Assembly (NCBI GenBank): GCA_037481875.1
Contig: JBBFKY010000003.1
Location: 241,235-305,234 of the forward strand
From: Desulfosoma sp.
GTDB lineage: Bacteria > Desulfobacterota > Syntrophobacteria > Syntrophobacterales > DSM-9756
DNA length: 64,000 nt
Direction of reading: 5' to 3'
The position numbers were made by a program, and so were the translations under genes. Positions 29,233-33,348 of this stretch are shown piece by piece. Position 1 is the first letter of the stretch, and each line of letters starts with the position of its first letter. The notes under the pieces are model-generated. The model saw nothing but the letters and a program-made list of their open reading frames with translations. It did no database searches and had not been told where the DNA came from.

Positions 29233-29976
29233 TCAGAGCGGATAAACATTTCCTGACTCGAGGATTCTCCAACCGCTTCGTGTCTCTCCCAACAGCAAGT
29301 TGATCTGCCAGCCCACTTTACAATGGTCGGTGATCACTTTGGGAACCTTGACTTCCAGAAGTCCGGTGTCCATGGTCACGCCGGAAAGGATGAGAACACC
29401 CGGCCGAATGTCCTCAACGACAAAATAGTCATCCAGTTCGTCGTCCCAGGTCCGGGGAGGATGGGTTTGGGAAAAATCGTAGAGCAACCGAGCAAGGCGT
29501 TCGGCGGCTGGAAGCTCCCTAGAGGCTTCCGCCGCTAAGTCCATGGCTTTGCGAGCTTCTTCCTTTGGGGCGTAGCTTTTGGCAACCAGCCATTTCATGA
29601 GAGCTTTGGTGACCGTTCCTGCCGCTCGTAGAAGCGATTCCGAAGCCATGACCTTGCGAATCATAAAAAATGTCAGAAATGTGGACACTCCAGAAGGAAT
29701 CTTTTCCGGACCAAAAATGGCGCAAAATGTTTGATCCTTGTAATCCACCAAGCGCCGGTACAGGGTGTTTTCTCCGGCCGTGGGCAGCTCTTGGTAACCG
29801 TAAAGATTCAAGGAGGTGTGAAAAAGAGAGATAACCTCCTCGTAGCGTCGAAAAGTCTGAGGTTTCAGACGTTTTTTCTGGTCCGAGAGAAATTCGGCAA
29901 AGATGTCCTCTATGTTGGGCTTGGCCACCATCGGAAAGGAGATGATGTTCCCTTTGGCGTTGGCTTCGTTTTTCAT
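29233..29976 (-). CDS. Hypothetical protein with integrase-like N-terminal helical region
   Basis: The 247-residue protein starts MKNEANAKGNIISFPMVAKP. Residues 22-65 (IFAEFLSDQKKRLKPQTFRR then YEEVISLFHTSLNLYG) look like the core-binding SAM-like domain of tyrosine recombinases, but the catalytic Arg-His-Arg-Tyr part is absent, so it is not a recombinase. The C-terminal 70 residues appear beta-rich (DDYFVVEDIRPGVLILSG onward). Start ATG 29976 has GGAG six bases upstream. No operon partner; function unknown. Confidence 0.65.
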   Translation of the reverse strand: MKNEANAKGNIISFPMVAKPNIEDIFAEFLSDQKKRLKPQTFRRYEEVISLFHTSLNLYGYQELPTAGENTLYRRLVDYKDQTFCAIFGPEKIPSGVSTFLTFFMIRKVMASESLLRAAGTVTKALMKWLVAKSYAPKEEARKAMDLAAEASRELPAAERLARLLYDFSQTHPPRTWDDELDDYFVVEDIRPGVLILSGVTMDTGLLEVKVPKVITDHCKVGWQINLLLGETRSGWRILESGNVYPL

Positions 29977-30032: not shown

Positions 30033-30359
30033 TTATACCTTTCTTCCGCAAGAAGGGCAATACACAAAAGAGGGTTCCAAGGCCCTGCCACACGATGGAC
30101 ATCGATTTGTAACAGTTAAAGGTGGCGAAGGAGAAGGTCTTCCTTGAAAAACTTCATCCGGTGGCGCCGCATAACCGCATCGATCGCACATGAGCAGAGG
30201 TTCACCTTTTTTGACCGGAAAAAGTGGAATGAAGAAAAGGCTGAGGTAGTGGTCGATGCGTCTGAGGCGTGCTTGAGCCAGTCCACAAGCCGGGCATAAA
30301 CGCGGCGTTTCATCCAAGGTCTTGGTTTTGGGCTGAATGCCTCCGATGAAAAAGAACAC
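30033..30359 (-). CDS. Double zinc-ribbon protein
   Basis: The 108-residue protein starts at GTG 30359 (MFFFIGGIQPKTKTLDETPR), preceded by GGGGGTGAG. It has CPACG and CDRCG knuckles around a hydrophobic stretch (HYLSLFFIPLFPVKKGEP), then a second ribbon CPSCGRALEPSFVYCPSCG. The first half matches the zinc-ribbon family with the YxLxFFFIPLxP pattern found in many bacteria, function unknown. It is 56 bases upstream of the 247-residue gene on the same strand, so both may be cotranscribed. Confidence 0.75.
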   Translation of the reverse strand: MFFFIGGIQPKTKTLDETPRLCPACGLAQARLRRIDHYLSLFFIPLFPVKKGEPLLMCDRCGYAAPPDEVFQGRPSPSPPLTVTNRCPSCGRALEPSFVYCPSCGRKV

Positions 30360-30679: not shown

Positions 30680-31723
30680 CTACACATTAAAACGAAAATG
30701 CACGATGTCTCCGTCTTTCACAGGGTAATCTCGACCTTCCAGACGAACAAGACCCTGTTTTCGAGCTGCGGCATAGTCTCCGGCTCGGCGCAGATCCTCA
30801 TAGGCCACCACTTCCGCCCGAATAAAGCCTTTTTTCATGTCTGAATGGACCACGCCGGCCGCTTCCACCGCAGGCAGTCCACAAGGAATCGTCCAGGCTT
30901 TGACCTCGTCCTCTCCAACCGTGAAAAAGCTCCCAAGCCCCAGGAGCTGAAAAGAACGTCGAATCACACGGTCCATGGCCGAATCCGTAATGCCGTAATC
31001 CTCTCGAAAAACAGCCGCATCGGCTTCACTAAGCTGCGCCATTTCCATTTCGAGCCTTCCTCGAATGACCAAAACATCCTCTAGACCCTTCAAGTCCTCG
31101 GGAACATGTGGATTATCGTCGTCATTGTTGACAACCACAAGGATGGGCTTGGCCGACAGAAAAGTATACCCTTTGAGTTCCGGAGCCGTTGCCAGACTCG
31201 GTTCGGTTCGTAAAGGTTTTTCTTGGTTGAGAAGTTCGGCGCACCGTTGCAGAAGTTCCAGTTCCACGGCGGCGGTTTTTCGACCTTTTTTGAGTTCCGC
31301 CTCGATGCGTTCCAGGCGTTTCTCCACCGTCGCCAAATCCGCTAAAAGGAATTCTTCTTCCAGTTCCCGAAGGTCTCGTGCCGGATGAGGAAGGCCGAGA
31401 GCGGGATCCGAAAAATTGCGCACCACGACGAGGAAAGCTTCCACCGGGCGCATGTGCGTCAGAAGCAAGGCCATGTAATCCTTTTTCTTTTCAGCAACTC
31501 CCGCTATTCCCTGAAGATCCGTGTAAGTCACTTGCGCCGGCGTCTTTTTTCGAGGTTGATACAAGCTGAACAACCACTCAAGACGGGTATCGGGAACCGG
31601 TACCACACCCAAAACCGGCACAACTTGCCCGGAAACGGCTGCGGATTCACCGGTGCGTTGGGTCAACGCATTAAAGACGGTGGTTTTTCCAGATCTGCTT
31701 AGACCAACAATGCCCAGTTTCAT
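30680..31723 (-). CDS. YchF-type GTP/ATP-binding protein, divergent
   Basis: The 347-residue protein starts MKLGIVGLSRSGKTTVFNAL (P-loop) and has the YchF-like DLQGIAGVAEKKK, a coiled-coil insert (EEEFLLADLATVEKRLERIE onward) and the C-terminal TGS domain ending DYPVKDGDIVHFRFNV. YchF prefers ATP and acts in translation and redox stress. Its G1 loop reads GLSRSGKTT, not the usual GLPNVGKST, and the nucleotide-specificity site is VVVNNDDDN, so it is a diverged member. GGGAAGG precedes ATG 31723. It is divergent, 44 bases away, from the SLOG-like gene. Confidence 0.85.
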   Translation of the reverse strand: MKLGIVGLSRSGKTTVFNALTQRTGESAAVSGQVVPVLGVVPVPDTRLEWLFSLYQPRKKTPAQVTYTDLQGIAGVAEKKKDYMALLLTHMRPVEAFLVVVRNFSDPALGLPHPARDLRELEEEFLLADLATVEKRLERIEAELKKGRKTAAVELELLQRCAELLNQEKPLRTEPSLATAPELKGYTFLSAKPILVVVNNDDDNPHVPEDLKGLEDVLVIRGRLEMEMAQLSEADAAVFREDYGITDSAMDRVIRRSFQLLGLGSFFTVGEDEVKAWTIPCGLPAVEAAGVVHSDMKKGFIRAEVVAYEDLRRAGDYAAARKQGLVRLEGRDYPVKDGDIVHFRFNV

Positions 31724-31767: not shown

Positions 31768-33348
31768 ATGGTGATTATGGAAAAGCGTGTTTCTTTCATA
31801 CATCTTTCAAGGAACTTGAGCAATGCGTTGCTCCGGGCTGCCGCCGTGATGGAAGCGGAAGGGACTCTGAGCGGTCCGTTGCGACATGAACAGTTGGAGG
31901 CATTGATTCGAACATGGAGCCCCGACGCAAAGCTGGAACCCGCATGGGAGTCTTCCAGGAAGGCGCAGCGGGTGTCAACCGGATCGCCGAGGCTTCCAAA
32001 AATTCTTGAAAAATCAAAGACCCTGACCCACCAGTGGATGGCCCTGGGAACGAAAGTTCTCAGGTGCCGGTTTCCTCCCGGACATCCTATGGAATCCTGT
32101 CCAAAATATCTCTTTGCGTGGGGAACCCCGCCGGAACCGAACATCACCCTCTGTGCGGCTTTCAATTCACGCAAAGGGAAAAACACCCATGGCCAAGATC
32201 CTTGGGTGCTCGCTTTGCGTCAGGTCTTTGAACACATGGCGAAACATCCCGTGGGATGGGTGAGCAGCTATCAAACACCCGTCTACGATTTGACCTCATG
32301 CTGGGCGCAACTTTACCGTAAACCCCTTGTGCTTGTGGCTGTGCCTTCCCGCACTCGACCCGTTTTTCAGGAATGGATTTCTTATTTTCCAGACCTTAAG
32401 CCCTCATGGGTCCTTTCTTGTCTTCCGGGCCGCGCCGCCTGTTCGCCGTCCCGGTACGTGGTTTGTCGAGACCGCCTTGTGGCGGCCATAGCTCAGCATT
32501 TCTTTGTGCTTGCCGTCCGCGCTCAAGGCAATCTGGCTGAAGTTCTCTGGGATGAGTTGTCATTCCACCCTAAACACACCTGGGTTTTCCCATGTTCCAA
32601 GGTGTCCTCGGAAACGGAAGGAAACCGAAAAATTCTCGACTCCTTTCCCCATTGTACCCAAGCATGGCCTCAACCGAGCAAATCCGGCGTTTCAACCCCA
32701 AAACCCATGCACACCCCCATAACGAGGCGCTCCTTGTCAAAACCTTCGAGCCTCCAAAAGGAAGCCTTGCTTTTCCATTACACGAGATCGTGTCCCGGAC
32801 CGTGGCCTGGACAAAGCCGATGTGCCTGGGCTGAAGATCTGTTGAAGGCCAAGCCGTGGGCCGACCACACAGCCTTGGACACCCTGTGGCATATCCTTTC
32901 TGAGGGACGCGTGAGAGCCAGTGGACGGTTGATTCGCCACGGAATCCCCGTGGTGTCCTGGACACGCGTCGCCCCAGGGGATCTGTCTAAGCTTATACGG
33001 TGGAATCCCGCCTTGATTCGATGGACCTTTGAACCTTACGGGATCGCTGTCACAAAGCAAGTTTTGCAAGAACTTGGAGCCAAACCCGTCATTTATGCCC
33101 GTGAAGAGGATTATGCGAAGATTTCGGCAAAGGACCGTTTCCGATTTCAATTGCATCAGCCCGGCCGCATTTCATGGAAAAGAGAAAGGGAATGGAGGCT
33201 GCCTGCAGATCTTTTTTTGGATGAGTTGGACCCCGAAACCTGGTGGGCTTTTGTGCCAAGCCATGAAGAAGCATGCCGGCTTCAAGAAAATCTTGAGCGT
33301 CCCCGCCGCATTATTCCTCTGAGCGACCTGCCCGGCGAAGACTCGTGA
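31768..33348 (+). CDS. Protein with SLOG/DprA-like region and a C-terminal EREWR domain
   Basis: About 526 residues, not assigned to a named family. The region at about 110-265 resembles the Rossmann-like SLOG fold of DprA: FNSRKGK, VSSYQTPVYDLTSCWAQLYR (compare SGGxxG..D), a LVLVAVPS strand, and CRDRLVAAIAQHFFVLAVRA, which lines up with DprA's RNRIIAGLSxxxxVVEA. The C-terminal 85 residues have EPYGIAVTKQVLQELGAKPV, ISWKREREWRLPADLFLDEL and FVPS, a module I recall from uncharacterised bacterial proteins, some near defence genes. The canonical SGG loop is changed to SSYQT, so nucleotide binding is doubtful. The start is unclear (ATG 31768 or 31777), with no good ribosome site. Confidence 0.6.
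   Translation: MVIMEKRVSFIHLSRNLSNALLRAAAVMEAEGTLSGPLRHEQLEALIRTWSPDAKLEPAWESSRKAQRVSTGSPRLPKILEKSKTLTHQWMALGTKVLRCRFPPGHPMESCPKYLFAWGTPPEPNITLCAAFNSRKGKNTHGQDPWVLALRQVFEHMAKHPVGWVSSYQTPVYDLTSCWAQLYRKPLVLVAVPSRTRPVFQEWISYFPDLKPSWVLSCLPGRAACSPSRYVVCRDRLVAAIAQHFFVLAVRAQGNLAEVLWDELSFHPKHTWVFPCSKVSSETEGNRKILDSFPHCTQAWPQPSKSGVSTPKPMHTPITRRSLSKPSSLQKEALLFHYTRSCPGPWPGQSRCAWAEDLLKAKPWADHTALDTLWHILSEGRVRASGRLIRHGIPVVSWTRVAPGDLSKLIRWNPALIRWTFEPYGIAVTKQVLQELGAKPVIYAREEDYAKISAKDRFRFQLHQPGRISWKREREWRLPADLFLDELDPETWWAFVPSHEEACRLQENLERPRRIIPLSDLPGEDS

What the first reader, a model, noticed from the sequence alone, without database searches (positions are those of the whole stretch)
31768..33348. SLOG/DprA-like protein with a C-terminal EREWR module, possible new system
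The central region resembles the nucleotide-binding fold of DprA and SLOG sensor proteins but with an altered glycine loop, and the C-terminal module has a conserved-looking EREWR segment. It is divergent from a YchF-type GTPase with a changed P-loop, 44 bases apart. SLOG domains often act as nucleotide-signal sensors in defence and stress systems, so the pair could be a signalling unit.
Basis: partly seen in the sequence, partly recalled or inferred. Interest (0 to 1): 0.6.

Follow-up and report, generated by a model that had tools for sequence, protein, structure and literature searches.

The report
DprA-like protein fused to ADP-ribosyltransferase-fold domain
This gene makes an undescribed but widespread bacterial protein that joins a module related to the single-strand-DNA-binding protein DprA to a second module shaped like enzymes that attach ADP-ribose to DNA, so it may be a one-piece sensor and modifier of exposed DNA.

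Summary
The 526-aa gene at 31768-33348 is real: 38 of 58 other related genomes carry it. The Rossmann part is DprA-type. AlphaFold2 (pLDDT 91.6) aligns residues 14-314 with ShosA (Z 19.2) and pneumococcal DprA (Z 17.1), including the N-terminal SAM-like domain. Residues aligned with ssDNA-binding R52 and R143 of H. pylori DprA are kept in 61 and 65 of 69 homologues. DprA's usual C-terminal winged helix is replaced by a second domain (334-526), related to AbiGi (hhalign 95%), whose model best matches DarT, the ssDNA ADP-ribosyltransferase (Z 7.2-7.8). H337, R340, W346, P347, E473, E475 and R477 are invariant in 69 of 69. A short GPWPG insert marks the fused copies. The family occurs in about ten phyla, broadly follows taxonomy, and was not found in phages or plasmids. 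No constant partner or toxin/antitoxin neighbour was seen. The YchF-like neighbour is conserved only in the window's order. Most likely mechanism, inferred and unproven: an ssDNA-bound ADP-ribosyltransferase.

The parts
31768..33348 (+). Gene for a 526-aa DprA(SLOG)-ART fusion protein
   Evidence: ORF; homologues in 39/59 genomes and 80 named loci
31768..32082 (+). Residues 1-105: helical SAM-like N-terminal domain of DprA type
   Evidence: AF2 model; the VIA alignment to ShosA and DprA starts at residue 14-16
32083..32667 (+). Residues 106-300: Rossmann (SLOG) domain of DprA type
   Evidence: Foldseek E 2e-8, VIA Z 17-19; profile against PDB DprA/ShosA; TIGR00732 in 8/69 members
32161..32175 (+). 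Residues 132-136 FNSRK: replaces the DprA G-x-R loop; R135 aligns with ssDNA-binding R52 (R48 in J99) of H. pylori DprA
   Evidence: S134 68/69, R135 61/69
32467..32475 (+). Residues 234-236 RDR: R234 aligns with ssDNA-binding R143 (R139 in J99) of H. pylori DprA; D235 69/69
32668..32766 (+). Residues 301-333: linker (lower pLDDT in its first part)
   Evidence: pLDDT 72/60/63 around residues 301-330
32767..33345 (+). Residues 334-526: AbiGi-related, DarT-like ART-fold domain in place of the usual DprA winged helix
   Evidence: AF2 pLDDT 93.5; VIA DarT Z 7.2-7.8; hhalign to AbiGi 95.1%
32776..32787 (+). Residues 337-340 HYTR: first ART-type strand; H337 and R340 69/69
32797..32811 (+). Residues 344-348 GPWPG: start of an insert present in SLOG-fused copies and absent from the aligned standalone copies
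33184..33198 (+). Residues 473-477 EREWR: candidate catalytic glutamate E475 (E473, E475, R477 69/69)
   Evidence: position against DarT E160 by the end points of the structural alignment
30680..31723 (-). YchF-like GTPase, divergent neighbour (only near-full-length YchF-type match in the genome); neighbour only around the window's order

Best explanation
The gene encodes a one-piece protein in which a DprA-type module (SAM-like domain plus Rossmann/SLOG domain) binds single-stranded DNA and carries, in place of DprA's usual winged helix, an ADP-ribosyltransferase-fold domain of the AbiGi/DarT kind. The most likely mechanism is that binding to exposed ssDNA (stalled forks, damage, incoming DNA) places or activates the ART domain, which uses NAD+ to ADP-ribosylate nucleic acid (ssDNA first choice) with E475 as catalytic glutamate and H337 and R340 in the NAD+ site. 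Shown here: the architecture, the two folds as confident models, the conservation, the largely vertical inheritance and the lack of a constant partner. Inferred: ssDNA binding, NAD+ use, the DNA target, and the role as a chromosomal DNA-stress response rather than a mobile toxin-antitoxin.
For: DprA part: AF2 pLDDT 91.6; Foldseek and VIA best ShosA and DprA, Z 15.5-19.2; profile match to PDB DprA/ShosA; PF02481 in 11/69 members, best 1.9e-10; TIGR00732 in 8/69, best 4.5e-9; the HpDprA ssDNA residues R52 and R143 (PMC4489622) align with R135 (61/69) and R234 (65/69). ART part: AF2 pLDDT 93.5; VIA rows 1-7 are all DarT entries, Z 7.2-7.8 over 134-147 residues, followed by KptA/Tpt1, Arr and other ARTs; invariant H337, R340, E473, E475, R477; H and the EREWR residues also kept in the standalone copies aligned; the end points of the structural alignment (model 5-196 against DarT 6-207) put E475 near DarT E160. 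Solitary gene, single copy in nearly all genomes, tree broadly follows taxonomy.
Against: No activity data. DarT similarity is seen in structure only: hhalign against a DarT alignment gave 0.2%, Foldseek alone E 0.11, and Z below 8 can mean only a common arrangement. The third HpDprA ssDNA residue (K137) has no strictly conserved counterpart, only a basic stretch. A DNA-modifying ART without a neighbouring macrodomain or NADAR antitoxin would need self-control. Standalone copies sit beside ybeY, ligA and tatD, which fits RNA or DNA maturation as well as DNA modification.
Confidence: 0.42

Rival explanations
1. The ART-fold domain acts like KptA/Tpt1 or another nucleic-acid clean-up enzyme: it removes a phosphate or repairs an end of RNA or DNA using NAD+, and the DprA part brings it to the strand. 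A household repair protein, not a toxin.
For: Largely vertical inheritance over many phyla; standalone copies in a phoH-ybeY-lnt gene order, behind ligA and behind tatD; KptA/Tpt1 among the ART matches (Z 4.2-4.8).
Against: The KptA match is weaker and covers 80-86 residues against 134-147 for DarT; it covers only part of the domain.
Confidence: 0.2
2. A fused abortive-infection protein: a DprA-like sensor as in ShosA/PsyrA joined to an AbiGi-like domain, which senses phage replication and stops growth.
For: PADLOC models PsyrA (9/69, best 1.3e-11), ShosA (4/69) and AbiGi (6/69) match family members; ShosTA is discussed as sensing DNA replication or recombination intermediates (PMC10732053).
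Against: No toxin partner of those systems beside the window gene, varied and mostly household neighbours elsewhere, nothing found in phage, plasmid or viral collections, tree broadly follows taxonomy, frequent presence in relatives (28 of 37 good genomes).
Confidence: 0.18
3. The C-terminal domain is a non-catalytic ligand- or DNA-binding module, and the whole is a regulatory or recombination-mediator DprA paralogue.
For: DprA accessory domains are variable (PMC4489622); the DarT link is by fold only.
Against: Eight C-terminal residues are invariant in 69 proteins whose identity to the window protein goes down to 21%, several of them polar and typical of an active site.
Confidence: 0.15
4. 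One reading: a SLOG sensor of a nucleotide signal working with the YchF-like GTPase as a signalling pair.
For: Divergent YchF-like neighbour in 17 of the 30 nearest loci, with distances from 44 bp to several hundred bp.
Against: The pair is confined to the window's order; in some relatives the neighbour is ThiC, and in other phyla it is unrelated. The YchF-like gene is the genome's only near-full-length YchF-type match, so it probably has its own household role. The SLOG is DprA-type, not LOG/YpsA-type.
Confidence: 0.05

Closest known systems
DprA / Smf (PF02481, TIGR00732)
   Same: SAM-like N-terminal domain plus Rossmann domain, Z 15.5-17.1; motif blocks around the G-x-R loop, SG.A.G.D, RNR and KSG are recognisable; two ssDNA-binding arginines kept
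   Different: The winged helix seen in H. pylori and R. palustris DprA is replaced by an ART-fold domain; FNSRK replaces the glycine loop; the genome also has its own true DprA (236.6 bits)
ShosA and PsyrA (DprA-like antitoxins)
   Same: Best structural match (8zva, Z 19.2) and PADLOC PsyrA/ShosA matches in family members
   Different: No adjacent toxin; carries its own ART-fold domain; chromosomal and largely vertically inherited
DarT (ssDNA ADP-ribosyltransferase, PF14487)
   Same: Best fold of the C-terminal domain, Z 7.2-7.8; HxT on the first strand and a late glutamate
   Different: No sequence-profile match, extra GPWPG insert, no DarG macrodomain neighbour, fused to a DprA module
AbiGi (PF10899) and DUF2971
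   Same: Profile-profile match to AbiGi 95.1%, E 3e-8; shared H[FY]T, CFCDIPL-like, YGI, PVxY and E[RK]EWR blocks
   Different: The AbiGi copies fetched are separate proteins without the DprA module; the window protein itself gives no Pfam AbiGi match
LOG / YpsA SLOG enzymes and sensors
   Same: Same Rossmann class, Z about 9-10
   Different: Much weaker than DprA; no typical LOG PGGxGTxxE motif

Membership tests
DprA (PF02481) | SAM-like plus Rossmann fold of DprA | tested here: met
   VIA Z 17.1 to 3uqz over 249 residues, 19.2 to ShosA over 273
DprA (PF02481) | Sequence profile match | tested here: inconclusive
   11/69 members match PF02481 (best 1.9e-10) and 8/69 match TIGR00732, but the window protein itself matches neither
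DprA (PF02481) | ssDNA-binding basic residues (HpDprA R52, K137, R143) | tested here: inconclusive
   R52 and R143 equivalents kept in 61/69 and 65/69; K137 not strictly kept
DprA (PF02481) | RecA loading, transformation role | not testable with these tools
   Needs biochemistry
ART superfamily | ART fold with NAD+-site residues on the first strand and a late catalytic glutamate | tested here: inconclusive
DarT (PF14487) | DarT sequence profile | tested here: not met
   PF14487 is not among the families matched by members; hhalign 0.2%; none in the own genome
DarT (PF14487) | Neighbouring macrodomain (DarG) or NADAR antitoxin | tested here: not met
   Window neighbours are YchF-like, zinc ribbon and ObgE; not among the recurrent neighbour families of distant loci
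AbiGi (PF10899) | AbiGi profile | tested here: inconclusive
   hhalign 95.1%; 10/68 members match at E<=1, best 5.1e-5; window protein none
AbiG system | AbiGi next to the AbiGii toxin | tested here: not met
   The genes beside the window gene are YchF-like and ObgE, no nucleotidyltransferase-type toxin
ShosTA / PsyrTA | DprA-like antitoxin beside its toxin (ShosT or PsyrT) | tested here: not met
   Neighbours listed; no such gene beside the window gene
LOG phosphoribohydrolase | PGGxGTxxE motif | tested here: not met
   The equivalent stretch reads RxxGN; R251 68/69, G254 64/69, N255 39/69

The most novel reading that the evidence does not exclude
A widespread, largely vertically inherited, antitoxin-free DNA ADP-ribosyltransferase in which a DprA module senses single-stranded DNA and switches the ART domain on in cis, meaning that ADP-ribosylation of DNA would be a regular chromosomal DNA-stress response in several bacterial phyla and not only a mobile toxin.
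Probability: 0.25. Interest if true: 0.85.

Novelty: new variant of a known kind. Interest (0 to 1): 0.6.

Why it matters
DprA-type ssDNA binding and ART-type nucleic-acid modification are well known separately. I found no description of the two in one chain, though the open-access search was limited. If active, it would be a self-contained sensor and modifier of ssDNA in sulfate reducers, Planctomycetes, Zixibacteria and others, and would give the AbiGi/DUF2971-type domains, whose biochemistry is unknown to me, a testable activity.

Tried and rejected
Direct Pfam, NCBIfam, PADLOC and PDB sequence searches with the single protein gave nothing; only the family alignments did. hhalign of the C-terminal domain against DarT gave no signal, and AbiGi against DarT none either, so the DarT link rests on structure. 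Foldseek alone ranked DarTG first with a poor E-value. A viral-structure search gave weak matches, among them a phage putative RNA 2'-phosphotransferase. Searches for mobile copies (viral contigs, phages, plasmids) found none; the phage and plasmid searches used the window protein alone and see only fairly close relatives. The neighbour scan used mechanically picked ORFs in distant loci and lists only the 25 commonest families, so a rare antitoxin could be missed. The PD-T4-6 and mads matches there come from one or two proteins and look like ordinary kinases and similar genes; I do not count them as defence. Literature searches for ShosA and PsyrA, for SLOG-ART fusions and for DUF2971 gave no paper on this fusion. 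In the tree, some MAGs are labelled Myxococcota although their titles say only Deltaproteobacteria, so the scatter of that label is not evidence of transfer.

Full report
1. The observation. The reading frame at 31768-33348 (+) encodes 526 aa. It is a gene: homologues were found in 39 of 59 genomes listed, the own genome included, and in 28 of 37 good-quality ones. Identity is 62% and 53% within the genus, and differences to those two fall mostly at third codon positions. The neighbour claim is right too: the YchF-like gene on the other strand begins at 31723, 44 bases away, with P-loop GLSRSGKT, and scores 248 bits on TIGR00092 against a cut-off of 279.

2. Family. An alignment of 28 relatives was used to fetch 80 named loci from Desulfobacterota (Desulfosoma, Desulfacinum, Desulfoferrobacter, Desulfomonile and others), Planctomycetes (Rhodopirellula, Blastopirellula), Zixibacteria, Calditrichota, LCP-89, Lindowbacteria, Hydrogenedentota and others. 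A 69-sequence alignment has nine invariant residues: D235, H337, R340, W346, P347, L373, E473, E475, R477.

3. N-terminal two thirds. The AlphaFold2 model has pLDDT 91.6. Foldseek's best matches are ShosA (8zva) and DprA, E down to 2e-8. VIA gives ShosA Z 19.2 over 273 residues (model 14-314), pneumococcal DprA 17.1, H. pylori DprA about 16, and LOG-type structures about 10. The family profile finds ShosA and DprA among PDB sequences. PF02481 matches 11 of 69 members and TIGR00732 matches 8. In H. pylori DprA, R52, K137 and R143 are needed for ssDNA binding (PMC4489622). The profile alignment puts R52 on R135 (61/69) and R143 on R234 (65/69); K137 falls in a basic but variable stretch. So this is a DprA-type module with a changed loop (FNSRK), more likely to bind DNA than a small nucleotide signal (inference). 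The genome keeps a separate ordinary DprA.

4. C-terminal third. Residues 326-526 were modelled alone (pLDDT 93.5). VIA ranks seven DarT structures first (Z 7.2-7.8, 134-147 residues), then a string of other ART folds, KptA/Tpt1 and rifampin ARTs included. Foldseek by itself is weak (E 0.11), so the fold assignment is good but not certain. By sequence the domain belongs with AbiGi: hhalign 95.1%; PF10899 in 10 of 68 members, best 5.1e-5. It does not match a DarT profile. The first strand carries HYTR and a late strand EREWR. The end points of the structural alignment (model 5-196 on DarT 6-207) place E475 close to DarT E160, the catalytic glutamate (PMC11543638). That is an inference, because no coordinates could be superposed here.

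5. A linked detail. Standalone copies of the domain (about 184-216 aa, no SLOG) in other families keep H and EREWR but lack the roughly 22-residue stretch beginning GPWPG that the fused copies have (W346 and P347 are 69/69 in the fused alignment). Only a handful of standalone copies were compared. That insert may be where the ART domain meets the DprA module or its DNA (inference).

6. Context. Around the window's order the YchF-like gene is divergent and adjacent in 17 of the 30 nearest loci and in 14 of the 80 named ones; many of these are the same genomes under two locus ids. Elsewhere the neighbours are ThiC, a prepilin-peptidase and helix-turn-helix gene group, or varied, mostly household genes. 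No macrodomain, NADAR or toxin partner recurs. The tree broadly follows taxonomy: Planctomycetota, Zixibacteria and LCP-89 are each one side of a branch, and the window's relatives form one well-supported clade (quick tree, some branches weak). Phage, plasmid and viral collections gave no match. This looks like a chromosomal, largely vertically inherited gene and not like a mobile defence island.

7. Mechanism. Best-supported: an ssDNA-binding DprA module that brings an NAD+-using ART domain to exposed DNA (confidence 0.42). The rivals are a KptA-like repair role (0.20), a fused abortive-infection protein (0.18), a non-catalytic module (0.15) and the YchF signalling pair (0.05).

8. Novelty. 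DprA, DarT, AbiGi, ShosA and PsyrA are known. I did not find the DprA-ART fusion described, and no family library searched names it. I rate it a new variant of a known kind, interest 0.6.

Noticed in passing
L142:3661-4215 (+), also L143, L144, L145: Standalone ART-fold/AbiGi-like domain gene directly behind ybeY (start and stop overlap in L142), in a phoH-ybeY-[ART]-lnt order, in one family of the phylum.
   Followed up: partly
L147:187-792 (-): Standalone copy of the same domain directly downstream of an NAD-dependent DNA ligase gene (ligA).
   Followed up: partly
L148:196-819 (-): Standalone copy directly downstream of a TatD-DNase/radical-SAM fusion gene.
   Followed up: partly
30680-31723 (-): The only near-full-length YchF-type protein of this genome scores below the YchF equivalog cut-off and has a changed P-loop (GLSRSGKT); it is well conserved (61-88% identity) next to this gene in the order.
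   Followed up: partly
L146:3242-4492 (+): A 416-aa protein with a weak match to the ART-like domain profile plus a C-terminal DUF4427.
   Followed up: no
29233-29976 (-) and 30033-30359 (-): An integrase-N-terminal-like protein and a zinc-ribbon protein that stay next to the YchF-like gene in several relatives of the family.
   Followed up: no
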